Assembly: GCA_030631455.1 (NCBI GenBank) | Contig: DAOVLC010000039.1 | Location: forward strand, 1 to 8,827 | DNA length: 8,827 bases | Direction of reading: 5' to 3' | DNA from: Candidatus Zixiibacteriota bacterium | GTDB lineage: Bacteria > Zixibacteria > MSB-5A5 > JAABVY01 > JAHJOQ01 | In this document: positions 1 to 8,827 of the stretch, piece after piece | How positions within the stretch are numbered: the first letter of the stretch is position 1 | Layout of the letters: each line of letters starts with the position of its first letter | Notes under the pieces: generated by a model | Database searches by the model: none | The model's input: only the letters and a program-made list of their open reading frames with translations | Told to the model about the DNA's origin: nothing | Position numbers and translations under genes: made by a program

Positions 1-745
1 CGATTTCCAGATCGTTGACGTGACAGCCCTCAACGTTGCAGGCATTGGTATTTTCATCCTCTCCACTTTCCATCTCGAAAGTGTGGCCGCCCATTTCATA
101 ATCGACGCCGACCCTGAAATGGCACTTCACGCAGCCTTCGGCCACGCCAGTGGTATGCCAGGAGTTATCGTCGTAGTCGTAACCATCGTATTCATAGGCG
201 TTCTCGCCCAGCAACATGTCGGACTGGGGGCTGTGATGCGGCCCGAAGTGGCCACTCAACTCCACGCCATCGGGGACGTACGTTTCAACGTTGCGCCGCG
301 ACTTATGGCACTGGACACAGAGGTTCGAAACGCCTCGGTCGTAGGTGGCACCGTTCCCCAGTACGACCGCGTCGGTGATCCTGAGTTCAAAATCACCGTT
401 GGTATGAGGATCGTGGCAGGTGAAACAGCCGACGGACGTGAAATGATCGGCGGTTACATCGTCGCCGGTTACGCTGGCCACAAACCCTTCATTGGTGTGA
501 CAGGGTCTGCAGGATCCGCTGCTTCTCATGGCATTGCCGGACCCATGCGCCGAGTTTTCCCACTGCCGAGTGGCCAGAACAACCTCTGTACCGAGATCGT
601 TGGCGCCGTCGTGGCAAGCGAAGCAATTGACAGAGCTGTTGTCCTCAAGATGTTCCACATTGCCAGTGATCTTCCGTTCACACGATGCCATGGAAGCCAC
701 AAGAGCTACGAGACAAATGGTTCCTAGCAGCTTCAGAACGTTCAT
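1..745 (-). CDS. Multihaem c-type cytochrome, candidate outer-membrane/surface lipoprotein (3' end beyond window)
   Basis: Translating from the ATG at 745 gives 248 residues with no stop before the left edge. Residues 1-21 are a signal sequence ending in SMAS before Cys22, a lipobox-like site (Met at -3 is not ideal), so a lipid-anchored mature protein is plausible. Covalent haem sites visible: CFACH 41-45, CRPCH 79-83, CFTCH 107-111, CVQCH 143-147, CVKCH 205-209, and an expanded CX4CH site at 236-242. Distal-ligand candidates include His67, His114, His170 and His171. AGGAGG (751-756 on the complement) sits 5 bases before the ATG and overlaps the stop codon of the barrel gene, so the start is firm. 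As the third partner after a decahaem cytochrome and a barrel, it probably does the job of MtrC/OmcA or a Geobacter OmcB-type protein: passing electrons from the conduit to extracellular acceptors. That role rests on position. The sequence itself supports only a secreted multihaem cytochrome. Confidence 0.85.
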   Translation of the reverse strand, partial: MNVLKLLGTICLVALVASMASCERKITGNVEHLEDNSSVNCFACHDGANDLGTEVVLATRQWENSAHGSGNAMRSSGSCRPCHTNEGFVASVTGDDVTADHFTSVGCFTCHDPHTNGDFELRITDAVVLGNGATYDRGVSNLCVQCHKSRRNVETYVPDGVELSGHFGPHHSPQSDMLLGENAYEYDGYDYDDNSWHTTGVAEGCVKCHFRVGVDYEMGGHTFEMESGEDENTNACNVEGCHVNDLEI

Positions 746-750
746 AGTAC

Positions 751-756
751 CCTCCT
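751..756 (-). promoter_or_regulatory. Ribosome binding site AGGAGG for the surface cytochrome
   Basis: A perfect AGGAGG on the minus strand lies 5 bases before the ATG at 745. Its first two bases are the last two of the TAG stop of the barrel gene (755-757), so termination and re-initiation occur on the same short stretch and the genes are probably translationally coupled. Confidence 0.85.
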
Positions 757-2320
757 AAAACGATAGATCCTTTATAATTTTAATTTCTACAATATTGGCC
801 GTGTAATACTCGTCGAATTGGCTTGTATACACGAAATCATCGAAGTTGTGAACGTTGTATTCGAGTTCGACGTGGTAGTCTTCGAGGAACCGGTAGCCAA
901 GACTGAAACGAAGCCAGGATTTCTCGACGTCCAGGTCGCGTTTACTTCGATAATATGTCCCGCCGAACCCGGCAGTGAAGTTATGACACTCTCGCGAGAC
1001 TATGTCGGCGTAGATCGTGTGATCCCTGAATTCGAAGCCCCCGTCTACATTGGTATAGATACCCCGTGCATATGAATACCCCCCAATGAAACTTGCAAAG
1101 CGCCAGAAATCGCCACTCAGGTCGACCGTGGGCCGCACAAACTCCGACTTACTGCCGAGCTGCTCGTTCTCCCTGATGCGGGCATCAACCTTGACCGCGA
1201 TTGTGGCATCTCTGGGACAGCGGTATTTCACTGAGAACTTGTATTTCTGGCGATCTTCATCGCCAATAAGTCTGCGTCCTCCCTTGACTTCCTCACTGCG
1301 CGCGCCATACTCGCCTCGAAGCTCAAGCTCTGAGATCGGCTTGACCCGGCCTGAGAAATAATAAGAACTAACCTGCACCTCATCGGAGAGATCGTCGTTG
1401 TAGTCTTTGATGTATCCCGCTGTCACCTGAGCAAGTCCCGGCCAGACGTGTGACGCATAGAGTGCATGAGATACATTGTCAGTTTTGACCAGATCACTCT
1501 CCGATCCCGACCTGTCGAACACAAGGGCGTACTTCAGCGCGAAATTCTCCGGCAATGCGACAGTAGCGCCACCCCAGCCCTTGTTGGATGTGATTTTGCT
1601 GCCGGAAGCATTGTACTCTGCGGTAAATCGTCTGAATCCTCCGAAGACCGAGACCTCCTCATATTTAGGAAGCGGTCCAGCAGCAGTAGCCATGAAGCTG
1701 AGACGATCCTGATCGCGACTCGAATTCAGATCGTCGGCGTAATTAGATGCTCGGATCTCGGCCCGCAGCATCCTCCCCATATGATTGAACTGTACACCAC
1801 CGTTGTAGTGCTTCTGGGTATAGTCTGTCGTGAGACCCGTACCGGGCGCAGTAGCGTCGAATAGCTCGGTCATGGAACCTGATTTGTCGACGAACGAGCC
1901 ACCCCCGAAGAGCTTCACGTACCTGTGCGGGAATACCCAGATCGATCCGCCGGTCCGATGACGTTTCGTGAAGCGACCTCCTTCGAAATCATACAGCCGT
2001 CGATACTTGTTGTGGAATAAACTGACACCGAAAAGGCCCACCCTCCGTAAGCTTGCCTTCAGGTTCCGGTTGTTTAGTGTAATATTCCTAAAGTCCGCTC
2101 TAAGGTTCATACCATTGGTGAACCTGTACCTGAGGTTCTCGAAAGACAGGGCTGCGCCCTCATAGTCATTGAAAGTCGATTGGTTGACCGACTGATTCCC
2201 TTCCTCGTCAAGGAATATGTAACTGAGAGCTACATCGCCGCTACCGGACGATGAGTGAGCGACGGAAGCGATTAGAAGCAGCGCCAACATACTTGTGATA
2301 GCTATATTTATGACTCGCAT
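755..2320 (-). CDS. Outer-membrane beta-barrel protein, MtrB/PioB-like porin of a porin-cytochrome conduit
   Basis: 521 residues from the ATG at 2320. A second ATG directly upstream (2323) is possible, but AGGAGG at 2327-2332 is 6 bases from 2320 and only 3 from 2323. Residues 1 to about 23 form a signal peptide (MRVINIAITS, then a Leu-rich core, then SVAHS). The rest is a long series of alternating polar and hydrophobic stretches, each about 10 residues and rich in Tyr, Phe and Gly, separated by charged turns. It ends in Ser-Phe; a C-terminal Phe is the usual BAM recognition residue. This is a transmembrane beta-barrel profile. It lies 11 bases after the decahaem gene and 9 bases before the surface cytochrome, the arrangement of MtrA-MtrB-MtrC and Geobacter porin-cytochrome clusters. 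Its likely job is to hold the decahaem protein in an outer-membrane pore. It is shorter than Shewanella MtrB (about 700 residues) and lacks an N-terminal CXXC pair; its only cysteines in the mature part are Cys368 and Cys445. The family label rests mainly on fold and context. Confidence 0.8.
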   Translation of the reverse strand: MRVINIAITSMLALLLIASVAHSSSGSGDVALSYIFLDEEGNQSVNQSTFNDYEGAALSFENLRYRFTNGMNLRADFRNITLNNRNLKASLRRVGLFGVSLFHNKYRRLYDFEGGRFTKRHRTGGSIWVFPHRYVKLFGGGSFVDKSGSMTELFDATAPGTGLTTDYTQKHYNGGVQFNHMGRMLRAEIRASNYADDLNSSRDQDRLSFMATAAGPLPKYEEVSVFGGFRRFTAEYNASGSKITSNKGWGGATVALPENFALKYALVFDRSGSESDLVKTDNVSHALYASHVWPGLAQVTAGYIKDYNDDLSDEVQVSSYYFSGRVKPISELELRGEYGARSEEVKGGRRLIGDEDRQKYKFSVKYRCPRDATIAVKVDARIRENEQLGSKSEFVRPTVDLSGDFWRFASFIGGYSYARGIYTNVDGGFEFRDHTIYADIVSRECHNFTAGFGGTYYRSKRDLDVEKSWLRFSLGYRFLEDYHVELEYNVHNFDDFVYTSQFDEYYTANIVEIKIIKDLSF

Positions 2321-2326
2321 CATTCT

Positions 2327-2332
2327 CCTCCT
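2327..2332 (-). promoter_or_regulatory. Ribosome binding site AGGAGG for the barrel gene
   Basis: AGGAGG on the minus strand starts with the final A of the TGA stop of the decahaem gene (2332-2334). The spacing of 6 bases to the ATG at 2320, against 3 bases to the ATG at 2323, is the reason for choosing the inner start. Confidence 0.8.
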
Positions 2333-3267
2333 CACTTGCTCAGAAAGTGGCAATAGCAATCAAATGCGAGATCCGGATCGAGAAACATGCGGTTATCAAA
2401 CGATCCATGGATATCGCTGTGACAGTTCACGCAGGTGTGCTGGCCCCCGATCCCACCATGCACGACCCTGTGCTTGGGCGGAATGCCATGGCACTGTATG
2501 CAAACGCCGTCCCCGGCCTGATTCAGCAGACGGTCGTTAGGTGAACCGTGAGGCTGATGACACTCGACACAACCTCCCCCTTCTACAAGATGAGCATTGA
2601 CGACCGGGTGCTCATACAAAAAAGGTCCGGAAAGCTCAGAGTGGCAGTCCTGGCACGTCCAGTCGAGTCCTGTGGCAAAGATGGGATTCTGCATGCCCGA
2701 AAGGTCGTGGCAGTCGACACACCTGATATTCCCTGACTCTAACGGATGCGCGGAGCGGCGTTTGAATTCCGTTGCGATGCCGCCGTGGCATGACAGGCAA
2801 AAGACCTCGCGGTCATTCGCCACAAGTTTCTCGTTCGAATTGAAGTGAACAGTGTGGCACTCAAGGCACGCAACACCCGCATTGCCGTGTGGGTCTGTCG
2901 AGACCATCGCCACCTGATGAGCTGTCACGTGGCATCGACCGCAGACCTCCGCCTGCATTGCGGCCGAGAGTCCGAAGCCCGTGGTTATGTTGTCGACCGT
3001 CGGATCTTCGACGTGCACCTCCCATCCATCATGGCAGCCAATACAGCCGATCGAGATGGCCGATGAGCTCGATTCCGATGTGACCCGGTGTACTGACCCG
3101 TCGAGAGATTCGGCCATATCATCGTGGCAATCGAGACAGAGTTCAGTTGTCTCAAGTAACTTATCCTTCGAGTAGGAAACCGGTGTCGATGCGGTAACAG
3201 ACAGGGCCAGAAGGACCGTCGGCAACAAGATCATAGCCCAGAAACAAAGCGCTTTGCTCGCTGTCAT
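2332..3267 (-). CDS. Periplasmic decahaem c-type cytochrome, MtrA/DmsE family
   Basis: 311 residues with an N-terminal signal segment (hydrophobic core about 8-25, then VTAS). Ten CXXCH motifs start at residues 44, 75, 109, 134, 157, 183, 205, 233, 256 and 279. Haem count and length match MtrA/DmsE-type proteins, and the stretches GPFLYEHPVV (214-223) and CVECHQPHGSPNDRLL (233-248) plus a final CVNCHSDIHGS resemble that family closely. These proteins form a haem wire that inserts into an MtrB-type barrel and carries electrons from the periplasm across the outer membrane. The frame is open to an ATG at 3336, but GGAGGGGAG lies immediately before the ATG at 3267, a signal peptide follows it, and a promoter occupies 3306-3333, so the longer start is rejected. 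The gene is the first of a three-gene unit with the barrel and surface cytochrome. Odd feature: the C-terminus carries CYCH (304-307), two cysteines separated by one residue before His, which is not a standard haem site. Confidence 0.9.
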   Translation of the reverse strand: MTASKALCFWAMILLPTVLLALSVTASTPVSYSKDKLLETTELCLDCHDDMAESLDGSVHRVTSESSSSAISIGCIGCHDGWEVHVEDPTVDNITTGFGLSAAMQAEVCGRCHVTAHQVAMVSTDPHGNAGVACLECHTVHFNSNEKLVANDREVFCLSCHGGIATEFKRRSAHPLESGNIRCVDCHDLSGMQNPIFATGLDWTCQDCHSELSGPFLYEHPVVNAHLVEGGGCVECHQPHGSPNDRLLNQAGDGVCIQCHGIPPKHRVVHGGIGGQHTCVNCHSDIHGSFDNRMFLDPDLAFDCYCHFLSK

Positions 3268-3271
3268 CTCC

Positions 3272-3276
3272 CCTCC
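3272..3276 (-). promoter_or_regulatory. Ribosome binding site GGAGG that sets the decahaem start
   Basis: GGAGG within GGAGGGGAG on the minus strand, 4 bases before the ATG at 3267. No comparable site precedes the upstream in-frame ATG codons, which supports the shorter protein. Confidence 0.75.
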
Positions 3277-3291
3277 GTATTTAATTCCCGT

Positions 3292-3316
3292 ATTCATGAA
3301 TCGTGAATATATGAAT
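3292..3316. repeat. Palindrome ATTCATGAAT and three phased TGAAT copies at the internal promoter
   Basis: A perfect 10-base palindrome occupies 3292-3301. TGAAT occurs at 3297-3301, 3304-3308 and 3312-3316, steps of 7 and 8 bases. The set covers the predicted transcription start and the -10 element, a position where a repressor would act. The region is AT-rich, so chance is a real alternative. Confidence 0.3.
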
Positions 3317-3333
3317 TCTATTCCCTTCGTCAA
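3306..3333 (-). promoter_or_regulatory. Candidate sigma70-type promoter for the decahaem-barrel-surface cytochrome unit
   Basis: On the minus strand TTGACG (complement of 3328-3333) and TATATT (complement of 3306-3311) are separated by 16 bases. Each hexamer matches the consensus at five of six positions. Transcription would start near 3299, leaving a leader of about 30 bases with the ribosome binding site at 3272-3276. The gap between the nonahaem stop and the decahaem start (3268-3455) is the only long gap within the six-gene series, where a second promoter would be expected. I see no convincing terminator in it, so readthrough from the upstream genes is also possible. Confidence 0.6.
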
Positions 3334-3455
3334 CATCTTTTTCGGATAAAATGCACCTTTTTAGTCCAATAAGTCCACATTAATCAAGCGTGTTCGACCA
3401 TAAGAATACGATCCTGAGCCTTCATCGACAGATATACAATATACGCATTCATAAA

Positions 3456-4724
3456 CTAAAGTGATTGCTGTCGCGCATCGATCTGGCGGGCTTTCAGCCA
3501 CAAGAGCAGCGCCAAAAGGCCGAGAAAGAACACAGATACGGCAAGGCCAGCGCGTCTGAAAACATAACCGGCAAGCAAATCGTCAGCGGCAACATCTGCC
3601 TGGGAAGCCAGTTCCAATCCTTCCGCTGTAACTCCTGTCACCTTGCCCAAGTCGAATGTGTGCACAGCAGTTTTGGCAGCAAACTCCTTCTGCCGGGCCT
3701 CCTGCCATGTGAATAGTGCATTCGTTACAAACAAACCCTTCCTGTCCGATTCATCTAACTTCTCTTTGACCACCGTCAGTGAAGTGTTCAGGCTATCTAT
3801 GCTTTTCCGCATTCCATCTGCAGCCTCGAGGCCTTCAGGGCTTTCATCCGAGTTGTGGCACTGTGCACAAACAGAAGTTTCACCATCCAAAATGTCCGTA
3901 GACGGGCTATCCACGTAATGATTAGAGTGGCATGTCTCACAGGCCGGCATTTCCAGAGCATCGAAGTATTCATTATGTGTAGACTGATCGAAGTTAGTCA
4001 TGTTATTTGCGTGACAGAGGCCGCATACTTTGTCAATGGAGCCAACTTCCGGCGGTACCGCCCCGTGGTTTCCATGACAATCATTGCACGCCGGCGCACC
4101 GATATCCCGCTTCTCTAACAGCGCTATTCCATGAACAGATCTTTCGTAATCCGTATGTTGATCCGTCGCAATATCGTACCCTGCCATGTACACGTTGTTC
4201 GCGTGGCATGCCGCGCATGTACCGGGCAAATTGAACGCATACGTGGATGATTTCGGATCGTTGGCTTTCCGAATATCGTGTGCGCGATGGCATGATGCAC
4301 ATTGGGCAACCTTGGTGTCCCCTGCGCTGTTACGAATACCATGGATCGATGTCATGTACTTTGCGTATTGGTCGATTGCCAGACCTGGATCGAAGCTTTT
4401 CATAAAAACCGGATCGCTATGGCATTTTGAACAGATCTTCGGAATGTCTGTGGGATCGGGCACACCGATGAAACCGGTCGCTTCGCTCATCGCCAGATCC
4501 TCATCATCGCTGGTCGGGTCACCGCCATGGCACCCCACGCAGCCCAAGGCCGCCTGATTGTGAATATCATTCTTAAACAACTCTGTAGGAGCCTCAATGT
4601 CCCCGTCGTCCAACTCAGAGTGGCAGTTTACGCAACCGCTTACTTCATCCTGACACAGGGCGCAAGGAGCGAGCAACAACAGACTCACCACCAAGTATAA
4701 GATGATCGGGAACAGTATCTTCAT
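3456..4724 (-). CDS. Membrane-anchored nonahaem c-type cytochrome of the Rieske/cytochrome b unit
   Basis: 422 residues. Residues 1-25 are a signal peptide (hydrophobic 4-18, likely cleavage before Gln25). Nine CXXCH motifs start at 31, 62, 98, 142, 170, 213, 234, 262 and 286. A haem-free, helix-prone stretch follows (about 300-385, with His355 in AVHTFD), and a single transmembrane helix at about 392-410 is followed by KARQIDAR, placing the C-terminus in the cytoplasm and the haem domain in the periplasm. The middle contains a repeated di-haem unit with a shared SxHGI element (126-130 and 196-200). It lies 9 bases after cytochrome b, and its only ribosome-binding-like sequence is the weak TAGG overlapping that gene's stop, so it is probably translationally coupled. 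No cytochrome c1 or f gene is present in the window, so this protein most likely takes electrons from the Rieske protein and hands them to periplasmic or outer-membrane carriers. The exact family is not identified. Confidence 0.85.
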   Translation of the reverse strand: MKILFPIILYLVVSLLLLAPCALCQDEVSGCVNCHSELDDGDIEAPTELFKNDIHNQAALGCVGCHGGDPTSDDEDLAMSEATGFIGVPDPTDIPKICSKCHSDPVFMKSFDPGLAIDQYAKYMTSIHGIRNSAGDTKVAQCASCHRAHDIRKANDPKSSTYAFNLPGTCAACHANNVYMAGYDIATDQHTDYERSVHGIALLEKRDIGAPACNDCHGNHGAVPPEVGSIDKVCGLCHANNMTNFDQSTHNEYFDALEMPACETCHSNHYVDSPSTDILDGETSVCAQCHNSDESPEGLEAADGMRKSIDSLNTSLTVVKEKLDESDRKGLFVTNALFTWQEARQKEFAAKTAVHTFDLGKVTGVTAEGLELASQADVAADDLLAGYVFRRAGLAVSVFFLGLLALLLWLKARQIDARQQSL

Positions 4725-4733
4725 GTCACATGC

Positions 4734-5822
4734 CTACGTACTTGTGTACCCAAGAATAGTCAACGCGATTATGTATAGGACAACGATCAAACCAACAAGT
4801 CGAACGAATCTGCTCCATCTCTTCCTGCTGCCGTCACGGTCAAAAACGGGCACGAGAGCCCAGAGCAAGCCACCGAGGCCGAACATCAGGATGCCCAGTA
4901 TTTCACCTTCGATTGACATAACATGAGCAGGTATATACTTAAGCGTTTGGAACATGAACATGAAATACCACTCCGGCTTGATGCCCGCGGGTGCCGACGT
5001 AAACGGATCCGCCTTCAGACCCAATTCCCACGGGGAGAGCACCGCCAGAACGGCCACAACTGCAAGCACCGCCGACCAGAGAGCAAAATCTCGCAACAAA
5101 AAATCCGGAAAGAACGGTGTGTAGCTTTTTTCGCTCTCAGGAAGGTCTTTCCAGCGAGGCGGCTCAGACATCCCCTGCCTCTGCACAAAGAGCAGATGCA
5201 TACTTAATATCAGCACAAACAGCCCGGGAAGTATGGCAACATGAATGCCGAAGAATCTCGACAGGGTGGTTGCGGTAACATCTTCCGAACCACGCAGGAA
5301 CTCGAGCAGAGGTTCGCCGATAAGCGGCACAGCACCAACAATGTCCGTTCCAACCTTGGTGGCAAAGAAGGCCAGTTCATTCCACGGCAGCAGGTAACCC
5401 GAAAAGCCAAAACCAAGACTGAGAAACAGCAGGAGTATGCCGGAAAACCATGTCAGTTCACGGGGAAAGCGATACGCCTTGGTGAAGAACACGGCGAACA
5501 TGTGAATGAATACGAACAGAATCATCAGGTTTGCGGACCAAGAGTGGATGTCGCGGATAAGCCAGCCGAACGGCACCTCCGACATTATGTATCGAACGGA
5601 CTCGAATGCCGAGTCGGCGCTTCCTTTGTAGTACATAAGCAGAAGAATGCCGGAGCAGACCTGCACAACGAACAGAAACATCGCCACACCGCCAGTATAG
5701 TAGAAGATCGAATGGCTGTGCCTTGGTACCTTCTTACTGCTCAGGAATGCAACAAGAGCGTCCAGCTTGAACCGAACGTTCAATTGGTCATACAGCTTAC
5801 TGTCTGTTCTCGTCACCTGCAA
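4734..5822 (-). CDS. Cytochrome b of a Rieske/cytochrome b quinol oxidase, b6-type with fused subunit IV domain
   Basis: 362 residues with about eight hydrophobic segments. The haem b ligands are His93, His107, His194 and His209. The 15-residue step in the second pair is the b6 spacing (14 in mitochondrial-type cytochrome b). All four sit exactly 7 residues after the plant b6 positions 86, 100, 187 and 202. The C-terminal half carries PEWY at 283-286, the quinol-oxidation (Qo) site motif of subunit IV, so the b6 and subunit IV parts form one chain. The position matching Cys35 of b6, which binds the extra haem c, is Tyr42 (in IFYYTGG), so that haem is not expected. The protein would oxidise menaquinol in the inner membrane with the Rieske protein. 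The frame begins with TTG at 5822, 3 bases after the Rieske stop; GTG at codon 3 is the alternative, and there is no usable ATG near the N-terminus. GGGG, 7 bases before the TTG, is the only ribosome-binding-like sequence. Confidence 0.92.
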   Translation of the reverse strand: MQVTRTDSKLYDQLNVRFKLDALVAFLSSKKVPRHSHSIFYYTGGVAMFLFVVQVCSGILLLMYYKGSADSAFESVRYIMSEVPFGWLIRDIHSWSANLMILFVFIHMFAVFFTKAYRFPRELTWFSGILLLFLSLGFGFSGYLLPWNELAFFATKVGTDIVGAVPLIGEPLLEFLRGSEDVTATTLSRFFGIHVAILPGLFVLILSMHLLFVQRQGMSEPPRWKDLPESEKSYTPFFPDFLLRDFALWSAVLAVVAVLAVLSPWELGLKADPFTSAPAGIKPEWYFMFMFQTLKYIPAHVMSIEGEILGILMFGLGGLLWALVPVFDRDGSRKRWSRFVRLVGLIVVLYIIALTILGYTST

Positions 5823-5825
5823 CCG

Positions 5826-6254
5826 TTAACCCCGCAATGAAACATAAACCTCGTTTCCCTTCAGGTGAACGTCAAACTCCTCAAGTGGTCTCGGTGGAGG
5901 CCCGGATATGTTCTTGCCGTTTATGTCAAACCGCCCGTTGTGGCAAGCGCAATAAATCGCTCCCATGTCTTTTCGATATTGAACCACGCAGCTCAGATGT
6001 GTGCAGGTTGCATGAAACGCCCTGAATTTCCCGTCCGCATCATGAATCAGCAGCCCCGGCTTGCGCCCGAACTTAAAGATCGTGCCGGAATCGAGAGGAA
6101 AATCCTCAATGGTTCCGACTTTCAGACTGGAGATGGCAGCCTCCGGGATCTCCTGCGGTTCAAGGTATCTGGCTGCGGGATAGAGTATGGCCGCCAGTCC
6201 TGCAAATACCGTACCTCCCAGCAGCCAATCAAGAAAGGAGCGTCGATCAATCAT
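5826..6254 (-). CDS. Rieske [2Fe-2S] protein of the cytochrome b complex
   Basis: 142 residues. The N-terminus (MIDRRSFLDW, then a hydrophobic stretch to about 25) is a twin-arginine-type signal anchor. Both Rieske boxes are intact: CTHLSC at 84-89 and CACHNGRFD at 102-110. From the family, Cys84 and Cys102 bind one iron, His86 and His105 the other, and Cys89-Cys104 form the disulfide. GPPPRPL (118-124) is the conserved proline loop. The short length and Thr-His-Leu box fit the b6f/prokaryotic type. It accepts an electron from quinol at the Qo site of cytochrome b and carries it to the c-type partner, here presumably the nonahaem protein. GGAG at 6261-6264 lies 6 bases before the ATG at 6254; the ATG 4 bases upstream opens only a three-codon frame. 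It is the first gene of the minus-strand series, with cytochrome b starting 3 bases after its stop. Confidence 0.93.
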   Translation of the reverse strand: MIDRRSFLDWLLGGTVFAGLAAILYPAARYLEPQEIPEAAISSLKVGTIEDFPLDSGTIFKFGRKPGLLIHDADGKFRAFHATCTHLSCVVQYRKDMGAIYCACHNGRFDINGKNISGPPPRPLEEFDVHLKGNEVYVSLRG

Positions 6255-8323: not shown

Positions 8324-8827
8324 ATGGAATCAGTTGGCAACGATAGGCGTGATCTGGTTCGCGGAATCTACGAGCAACACTGCTCGCATGTCAGGCATGC
8401 AGAGAGTCAGAGACTCTGGTTTACGATCATATTCGCTCTTCTGACCGCAGGCTGCCTGACCGTATTGCGATGTGAGTTGTTTGCAGCCGCCAACTGGCCG
8501 ATTGTCGGGTTCATGATGATCCTCTCGCTATTCGGATTGATCTTCTGTCTTGGAATTCAGTCCGCTCTCAAAGCGTACACTGACGCCGCAGATCTGATTC
8601 CGAGGAGATACAGCCTGGCGCACTATCTGCCCAGGTACAAGACGAACTCTCCGCACAGACTCTTCGGAGTGTCGAAGCTATTTCCGTTATTCTACCTTCT
8701 GCTCTTCAGCTTCTTCCTGTTCGTTCTACTTCAGATGGGACTTTGCAGCGTCTGGAAGAGCATACCTATTCCCGTTCTGATCTTTGTCATTGGCAGTATA
8801 ACCCTCTTTATCTCGAGATTCGATCAA
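8324..8827 (+). CDS. Multi-pass inner-membrane protein of unknown function (3' end beyond window)
   Basis: An ATG at 8324 opens a frame of 168 codons that runs to the window edge without a stop. The N-terminal 30 residues are polar and basic (NDRRDLVRGIYEQHCSHVRH), followed by transmembrane stretches at about 32-46 and 54-74, a polar stretch with YTDAADLIPRRY (80-91) and YLPRYK (97-102), then two more hydrophobic stretches at about 115-131 and 141-157. A purine-rich GGGAGAGAG lies upstream of the ATG. The layout, a soluble N-terminal segment followed by two helices and a loop, is loosely like RipA-type bacterial membrane proteins, but I cannot assign the family. It begins 130 bases after the dehydrogenase stop on the same strand. 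Confidence 0.7.
   Translation, partial: MESVGNDRRDLVRGIYEQHCSHVRHAESQRLWFTIIFALLTAGCLTVLRCELFAAANWPIVGFMMILSLFGLIFCLGIQSALKAYTDAADLIPRRYSLAHYLPRYKTNSPHRLFGVSKLFPLFYLLLFSFFLFVLLQMGLCSVWKSIPIPVLIFVIGSITLFISRFDQ

What the first reader, a model, noticed from the sequence alone, without database searches (positions are those of the whole stretch)
1..6254. One locus encodes an apparent complete route from quinol to the cell surface
Seen directly: a Rieske protein, a b6-type cytochrome b, a membrane-anchored nonahaem cytochrome, a decahaem MtrA-like cytochrome, a C-terminal-Phe beta-barrel and a candidate lipoprotein multihaem cytochrome, all collinear, with at least 25 covalent haem sites. Known: porin-cytochrome conduits (MtrABC, Pcc) are usually fed by separately encoded quinol oxidases such as CymA, ImcH or CbcL. 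Inferred: a bc-type, possibly proton-translocating complex is dedicated to this conduit, so extracellular respiration would conserve energy at the quinol step. That wiring would differ from the well-studied model organisms.
Basis: partly seen in the sequence, partly recalled or inferred. Interest (0 to 1): 0.75.

Follow-up and report, generated by a model that had tools for sequence, protein, structure and literature searches.

The report
Quinol pump wired to surface conduit
An uncultured bacterium carries, side by side, genes for a membrane complex that likely takes electrons from menaquinol and genes for a protein wire predicted to carry them through the outer membrane; similar gene pairings occur in two other bacterial phyla, and the arrangement would let cells save energy while respiring something outside the cell.

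The parts
5826..6254 (-). Rieske [2Fe-2S] protein, 142 aa, N-terminal membrane anchor; cluster motifs CTHLSC and CACHNGRF at about 5940-6005
   Evidence: PF00355 E 3.7e-12, PF25471 PetC anchor below cut-off; cluster ligands invariant in 70 of 70 rows
4734..5822 (-). cytochrome b, fused b6 + subunit IV type, 362 aa; four haem His (93/107, 194/209), PEWY at about 4965-4976, no Cys at the haem ci position. Start TTG 5822 or GTG 5816
   Evidence: PF00033 2e-52, PF00032 1.6e-10; best solved relatives are cytochrome b6; residues in 69 rows
3456..4724 (-). nonahaem cytochrome c, 422 aa, signal peptide-like N-terminus, C-terminal helix bundle and transmembrane anchor (residues 392-410, about 3495-3551)
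   Evidence: 9 CXXCH, hydropathy, model pLDDT 83.6, 8 non-CXXCH His invariant in 40 of 40 aligned
3268..3455 (-). 188-bp gap between the two three-gene halves with a promoter-like site (3333-3306)
   Evidence: (1 site found, 0.7 expected by chance)
2332..3267 (-). MtrA/DmsE-like multihaem cytochrome (open frame to 3336; start at 3267 by ribosome-binding site), 10 CXXCH plus a terminal CYCH (2347-2358)
   Evidence: TIGR03508 171.6 bits; profile of 9 MtrA-like proteins vs 6r2q_A 2.2e-56; tails
755..2323 (-). 26-strand outer-membrane barrel of MtrB fold, C-terminal Phe
2..745 (-). lipoprotein multihaem cytochrome, incomplete at the contig end; 5 CXXCH and one CX4CH (about 20-40); Cys22 in a lipobox-like MASC followed by Glu
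   Evidence: five relatives of 352-367 aa
6682..8193 (+). divergent neighbour, NAD(P)-binding NmrA/epimerase-like protein with DUF2867; not part of the system

Best explanation
The six genes encode a Rieske/cytochrome b complex with a membrane-anchored nonahaem cytochrome, predicted to oxidise menaquinol by a Q-cycle, beside an MtrAB-type outer-membrane conduit with a lipoprotein cytochrome that would likely receive its electrons and hand them to an acceptor outside the cell. Shown by sequence and prediction: protein families, haem sites, cluster ligands, cytochrome b His and PEWY, the barrel's MtrB fold, and recurrence of the two halves side by side. Inferred: (1) menaquinol is oxidised at the Qo site, one electron going to the low-potential Rieske cluster and on to the nonahaem cytochrome, which stands in for cytochrome c1/f, the other recycled through the b haems, so that protons are released outside. 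(2) The nonahaem cytochrome reaches MtrA, directly or through a periplasmic carrier. (3) MtrA inside the barrel, extended by a C-terminal haem in most relatives, passes electrons to the lipoprotein cytochrome, taken to be on the surface. The acceptor is unknown.
For: Cytochrome b: three haem His in 69 of 69 rows, the fourth in 68; PEWY P 69, E 68, W 69, Y 67; Rieske ligands 70 of 70, Gly at the position of the potential-raising Ser in 70 of 70, and Phe for Tyr in the window and 13 other rows (the positions are assigned from the CxCHGSxY motif, recalled). Ser and Tyr raise the potential; losing them costs about 130 and 65 mV in yeast (PMC12954380, passages). menB above cut-off in the genome. 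Barrel fold; MtrA match. Adjacency in the own order, 5 of 6 sampled genomes with both, in three arrangements: window Rieske-cytb-nona-MtrA-barrel-lipo; G002 MtrA-barrel-lipo-Rieske-cytb-nona; G004, G006, G007 convergent with a six-haem gene between. Two more in family f18, also convergent (G060, G085); one Latescibacterota locus, MtrA-barrel-Rieske-cytb-nona (L041); five acidobacterial loci with an MtrA-like gene and a 705-763-aa candidate outer-membrane protein upstream of the trio (L023, L025, L050, L078, and L059 with two nine-haem ORFs between). On the cytochrome b tree the label on these 13 rows needs 8 changes, the number that well-supported branches force. Across 146 genomes nonahaem gene and barrel co-occur more than expected (49 both, 29 nonahaem only, 22 barrel only, 46 neither; Fisher p 2.7e-4, not corrected for kinship). 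No haem-copper oxidase (COX1) was found in the genome; its other, partial cytochrome b lies by a bd-like oxidase with a fused cytochrome c.
Against: Class-wide the halves are mostly apart: 7 of 49 adjacent. Of 146 genomes, 22 have the barrel without a nonahaem orthologue and 29 the reverse, so neither needs the other. The acidobacterial partner is not shown to be a barrel: it has only sub-threshold matches to MtrB-type (L050) and GSU2204-type models and no clear similarity to a bona fide MtrB next to one of them. The 188-bp gap could hold a separate promoter. TIGR03508 and PF11854 fall below their curated cut-offs for the window proteins. The nonahaem cytochrome has no decisive fold match, and one of its nine haems has no conserved non-CXXCH His. 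The genome is 79% complete, so absences are weak. I have no expression or biochemical data.
Confidence: 0.6

Rival explanations
1. Two independent modules sit next to each other by chance of genome order: a general-purpose bc-type menaquinol oxidase serving several periplasmic acceptors, and a conduit fed by other quinol oxidases.
For: Each half is a conserved three-gene unit on its own; 42 of 49 genomes with both do not show adjacency; 19-haem proteins of about 930 aa, one of them checked and CbcL-like (L002), lie beside the conduit or the trio in relatives.
Against: Adjacency recurs in several clades, in different orders and orientations; chance would give about 0.2 of 49 genomes within 5 kb (my estimate: 10 kb of a 3-Mb genome), against 7 seen, though those 7 are not independent; no CbcL-like protein was found in the window's own, incomplete genome.
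Confidence: 0.24
2. Electrons flow inward: the conduit takes electrons from Fe(II) or a partner cell and the Rieske/cytochrome b complex runs in reverse to reduce quinone at the expense of proton-motive force.
For: MtoAB and PioAB are conduits of Fe(II) oxidisers, and a bc1 complex can run uphill in Acidithiobacillus (PMC10654088, passages). The genome has a bd-like oxidase with a fused cytochrome c. Sequence does not fix direction.
Against: The Rieske motif looks menaquinol-type, low potential; the third conduit gene is a lipoprotein multihaem cytochrome, as in reducing MtrABC; MtoAB and PioAB lack one (recalled; none is listed for them in the table passage of PMC10654088).
Confidence: 0.1
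3. The nonahaem cytochrome is itself a terminal enzyme (a nitrite or hydroxylamine type reductase) and the trio is a self-contained respiration unrelated to the conduit.
Against: No PF13447 (HAO family) match in the window's genome; no CXXCK haem site in the protein; no PF02335 in the genome; profile matches to solved NrfA and related chains cover about 57-87 profile positions only.
Confidence: 0.06

Closest known systems
Geobacter ext cluster (extHIJKLMNOPQS, GSU2940-2930)
   Same: [quoted passage not shown] proposed as a bc-type quinol oxidation site and possible second proton-pumping site (PMC5877670, PMC2825233, passages).
   Different: ExtP and ExtM models score below cut-off and ExtN is not among the matches of the nonahaem protein at E <= 0.01; ExtI is weakly similar to phosphate-selective porins and was not required for Fe(III) citrate reduction; the cluster as listed has no MtrA-like protein but a rhodanese and a selenocysteine cytochrome.
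MtrABC / DmsEF outer-membrane conduits (6r2q)
   Same: MtrA-like wire and a 26-strand MtrB-fold barrel with an associated lipoprotein multihaem cytochrome.
   Different: Barrel only 12% identical and shorter (534-residue model vs 649-residue chain); MtrA relatives carry an 11th C-terminal haem site; the lipoprotein has about 6 haem sites and is below the MtrC/MtrF Pfam cut-off.
mtrAB/mtoAB clusters with cymA or mtrH/mtoC (e.g. Rhodoferax ferrireducens)
   Same: Quinol oxidase or reductase encoded with the conduit (PMC6295460, passages).
   Different: Those quinol enzymes are NapC/NirT or HydC/FdnI-like, not Rieske/cytochrome b; 'rieske' does not occur in that survey's main text.
Anammox Rieske/cytochrome b complexes with multihaem c subunits (Kuste4569-4574, Kustd1480-1485)
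   Same: bc-type core with a membrane-anchored multihaem cytochrome c (PMC12954380, passages).
   Different: High-potential Rieske proteins (+303, +335 mV) that keep the Ser; proposed role in NAD(P)H formation; no outer-membrane conduit in the passages read.

Membership tests
Rieske/cytochrome b (bc/b6f) complexes | Rieske protein with 2Cys+2His cluster ligands and disulfide Cys | tested here: met
   Invariant in 70 of 70 rows including the window
Rieske/cytochrome b (bc/b6f) complexes | Cytochrome b with four haem-ligand His and Qo motif PEWY | tested here: met
   69 rows; three His in 69, the fourth in 68; P 69, E 68, W 69, Y 67; His spacing 14 and 15 (b6-type, recalled)
Rieske/cytochrome b (bc/b6f) complexes | Cytochrome c1 or cytochrome f as third subunit | tested here: not met
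   Third gene is a nonahaem c-type cytochrome; so bc-type core, but neither bc1 nor b6f proper
cytochrome b6f | Cys binding haem ci in cytochrome b6 | tested here: not met
   Position aligned with the Cys of FYC in cytochrome b6 (Cys35, recalled) is Tyr42; no Cys there in 69 rows
MtrAB/porin-cytochrome conduit | MtrA/DmsE family decahaem cytochrome | tested here: met
   Profile vs 6r2q_A 2.2e-56; but TIGR03508 171.6 bits, curated cut-off 192.2
MtrAB/porin-cytochrome conduit | 26-strand MtrB barrel | tested here: met
   [not shown]
MtrAB/porin-cytochrome conduit | Surface-exposed multihaem lipoprotein partner | tested here: inconclusive
   Lipobox-like MASC-E and six haem sites; gene cut by contig end; surface location not testable
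MtrC/OmcA family | MtrC/MtrF domain above cut-off | tested here: not met
   PF22113 25.9 bits, cut-off 30; the visible protein is incomplete
Geobacter Ext system | ExtP/ExtN/ExtM orthology by NCBIfam cut-offs | tested here: not met
   ExtP 211.7 of 290 bits, ExtM 24.1 of 800, no ExtN match to the nonahaem protein at E <= 0.01
HAO/eHao octahaem cytochromes (for the nonahaem protein) | PF13447 match | tested here: not met
   No match in the window's genome
HAO/NrfA fold (for the nonahaem protein) | Shared fold | tested here: inconclusive
   [not shown]
Extracellular respiration | Electron transfer to an external acceptor | not testable with these tools
   Needs culture or heterologous expression

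The most novel reading that the evidence does not exclude
In Zixiibacteriota, Latescibacterota and Acidobacteriota a proton-translocating Rieske/cytochrome b menaquinol oxidase with a nonahaem c-subunit has been joined, several times independently, to an outer-membrane conduit (in Zixiibacteriota an MtrB-fold barrel with an eleven-haem wire), making one genetic unit in which extracellular respiration conserves energy at the quinol step, a wiring not known from Shewanella or proven in Geobacter.
Probability: 0.37. Interest if true: 0.78.

Novelty: new variant of a known kind. Interest (0 to 1): 0.56.

Why it matters
In the model extracellular respirers the quinol oxidases that feed the conduit (CymA, ImcH, CbcL) are not Rieske/cytochrome b complexes, and complex I is described as one of the few coupling sites in Geobacter sulfurreducens (PMC12307469, passages). 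A bc-type complex encoded with the conduit would add a coupling site, raise growth yield on external acceptors, and give a genomic marker for that strategy in uncultured phyla. Recurrence across lineages is comparative evidence for a functional link that a single operon cannot give. The conduit family, with a barrel that sequence models miss, an 11th haem site on the wire and a small lipoprotein cap, would also widen what annotation tools should recognise.

Tried and rejected
Considered and rejected or left open: (1) That the barrel is an unrelated porin: rejected by the fold comparison, although Pfam and NCBIfam miss it and a sequence search of solved structures gives only one chance-level match (E 0.66). 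(2) That the nonahaem protein is NrfA/HAO-like: PF13447 gave no match in the genome; fold comparisons were indecisive; sequence search gave no PDB match for the single protein and only short ones for the profile. (3) That the CYCH tail is a new haem motif: close relatives (P0241, 85%; P0251, 70%) have CX2CH there, so in the window it looks like a shortened site; four more distant relatives show CXCH too (L157-L160). A literature search for CXCH with haem terms found no paper. (4) A CbcL-like quinol oxidase in the own genome: only weak matches to the window's own nonahaem gene. (5) Futalosine menaquinone route: no PF02621; menB is present. (6) Rfam: no match at gathering thresholds in the window. 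(7) The acidobacterial 705-763-aa proteins as MtrB barrels: not shown. Five scanned with NCBIfam and three with Pfam gave only sub-threshold matches or none; they are one family with each other but show no clear similarity to the MtrB-type protein (L078:2221-4638) that lies near one of them. (8) Labels in the first tree missed adjacent rows, because identical sequences had been merged under other locus ids (L084, L087, L094, L095) and L059 had been overlooked; corrected. There L072 and L044, whose contigs end just upstream, were counted as not adjacent although L072 shows a fragment similar to the acidobacterial partner. (9) One search used a loose MtrA label; the strict list is, which leaves out truncated ORFs and repeats of the same sequence; one of its ten unpaired rows (L170) is a truncated copy of the window.
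Full report
What is there. The window is the whole of contig C300 of an incomplete genome (79% complete, 427 contigs). Six minus-strand genes run from 6254 to the contig end. Families: Rieske (PF00355), cytochrome b with both b6 and subunit IV parts (PF00033, PF00032), two multihaem cytochromes of the c3/c7 type, a barrel with only a sub-threshold MtrB_PioB match, and a lipoprotein cytochrome. The haem count of 25 (24 CXXCH and one CX4CH) is right. Start sites move: MtrA-like at 3267 and barrel at 2323 or 2320, each with a ribosome-binding-site-like sequence; the halves are then 188 bp apart. The lipoprotein gene is cut by the contig end; five aligned relatives are 352-367 aa.

The quinol half. 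The nonahaem cytochrome has a C-terminal anchor and 3752 homologues at E <= 0.001, a lower bound because only 7998 candidates were scored. They come from Zixiibacteriota, KSB1, Calditrichota, Ignavibacteria, Bacteroidota, Latescibacterota, Acidobacteriota, Gemmatimonadota and others. In the 82 source sequences (80 loci, the window and a 3.9-kb stretch of it) a Rieske ORF is found in 69 and a cytochrome b ORF in 75, typically in the order Rieske-cytochrome b-nonahaem. Of 40 homologues that I chose for alignment, 29 have 11 haem sites. Cytochrome b keeps four haem His and PEWY; the cysteine that binds haem ci in b6 is not there; the Rieske motif is C-x-C-H-N-G in 66 of 70 rows, with Gly where high-potential proteins have Ser in 70 of 70, and Phe for Tyr in 14 including the window. 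Both Ser and Tyr raise the cluster potential (PMC12954380, passages read). With menB in the genome this points to menaquinol. This is inference; no potential was measured.

Are the halves linked? Of 146 genomes, 78 have a nonahaem orthologue (my cut, E < 1e-40), 71 have the barrel and 49 have both. Gene starts within 5 kb: 7 (G000, G002, G004, G006, G007, G060, G085). On one contig but far: 6 (52-977 kb). On different contigs: 36, some of which may be assembly breaks. In the sampled genomes of the window's own order (G000-G007), six have both; five are adjacent and the sixth, G001, has them on two contigs; G005 has the barrel only and G003 neither. The adjacency takes three forms: window order; G002 with the conduit genes first, same strand; G004, G006 and G007 convergent with a six-haem gene between. 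G060 and G085 are convergent too, with a six-haem and a four-haem gene between. Outside Zixiibacteriota, L041 (Latescibacterota) has MtrA-barrel-Rieske-cytochrome b-nonahaem on one strand. L023, L025, L050, L059 and L078 (Acidobacteriota) have an MtrA-like gene and a 705-763-aa protein upstream of the trio, in L059 with two nine-haem ORFs between. The three of these MtrA-like proteins that were scanned (L023, L050, L078) exceed the TIGR03508 cut-off, but the large partner is only a candidate outer-membrane protein: sub-threshold matches to PF11854 (L050 of three scanned), to TIGR03509 (L050) and to the GSU2204 family (four of five). On a 90-row cytochrome b tree the 13 adjacent rows need 8 changes, the number that supported branches force, and the own-order rows form one clade (5 rows, 100/100) that is wholly adjacent. 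Gains and losses cannot be told apart; five of the 13 rows are the acidobacterial ones. Different orders and orientations argue for repeated assembly.

Against the link: class-wide the halves are mostly apart, and each also occurs without the other. A 19-haem protein of about 930 aa lies next to the conduit or the trio in several relatives; the L002 copy has a formate-dehydrogenase-gamma-type domain, as CbcL has, so other quinol oxidases may feed the conduit; none was found in the window's own incomplete genome. That genome has no COX1 match. Its second, partial cytochrome b lies next to a bd-like oxidase subunit with a fused cytochrome c, so two bc-type complexes may serve two outlets.

What is known. 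Geobacter's ext cluster is the nearest published arrangement (PMC5877670 and PMC2825233, passages); the latter already suggested a bc complex as quinol oxidation site and a possible second proton-pumping site. mtrAB clusters with cymA or mtrH/mtoC are known (PMC6295460, passages), so a quinol enzyme beside a conduit is not new. A Rieske/cytochrome b one beside an MtrAB-type conduit did not turn up in my searches of the open library (listings; passages of PMC4245776, PMC10654088, PMC12307469, PMC12133095, PMC10439189 and PMC6349859); most listed papers were not opened, and subscription papers are not covered. [quoted passage not shown] Caldithrix abyssi has Rieske and cytochrome b genes in its Nap locus next to a gene annotated eHao (PMC5317091, passages), so this kind of core is proposed for other outlets too.

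Verdict. New variant of a known kind.

Noticed in passing
window 2347-2358; tails: An 11th C-terminal haem site in the MtrA-like proteins of this conduit family (120 of 120 listed homologues; 29 of 29 next to the barrel); the window and four more distant relatives have a CXCH form whose haem binding is doubtful.
   Followed up: yes
L002:16950-19745; also L166, L122, L168, L162, L156, L161: A 19-haem, about 930-aa protein next to the conduit or the trio in relatives; the L002 copy has a formate-dehydrogenase-gamma-type membrane domain (CbcL-like): a second candidate quinol oxidase.
   Followed up: partly
L173 (own genome contig C64, 6579 bp): Second, partial cytochrome b beside a cytochrome bd-like oxidase subunit with a fused cytochrome c domain: a bc complex apparently paired with another outlet.
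   Followed up: partly
L002:11296-12834, L003:11284-12795 and 21 other ORFs of cluster 3: A mostly six-haem, about 500-aa cytochrome (L002 copy: NapC/NirT-like stretch) recurs beside the trio or conduit; role unknown.
   Followed up: partly
A6 columns; L022, L055, L060, L064, L067, L080: The nonahaem family has an 11-haem form, seen in Ignavibacteria/Bacteroidota/Chlorobiota loci; in the nine-haem window protein only eight non-CXXCH His are invariant, so one haem may be Met-ligated or open.
   Followed up: partly
L019 and L036: Acidobacterial loci with two Rieske/cytochrome b sets in tandem, separated by a 17-18-haem cytochrome; one cytochrome b of L019 is highly divergent.
   Followed up: no
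L078:1263-4638: A second MtrA-like gene with a full-score MtrB/PioB family protein (TIGR03509 above cut-off) directly upstream of the MtrA-partner-trio cluster.
   Followed up: partly
window 8324-8827: Partial ORF of 168 aa, hydrophobic, without a Pfam or NCBIfam match at E <= 0.01.
   Followed up: no
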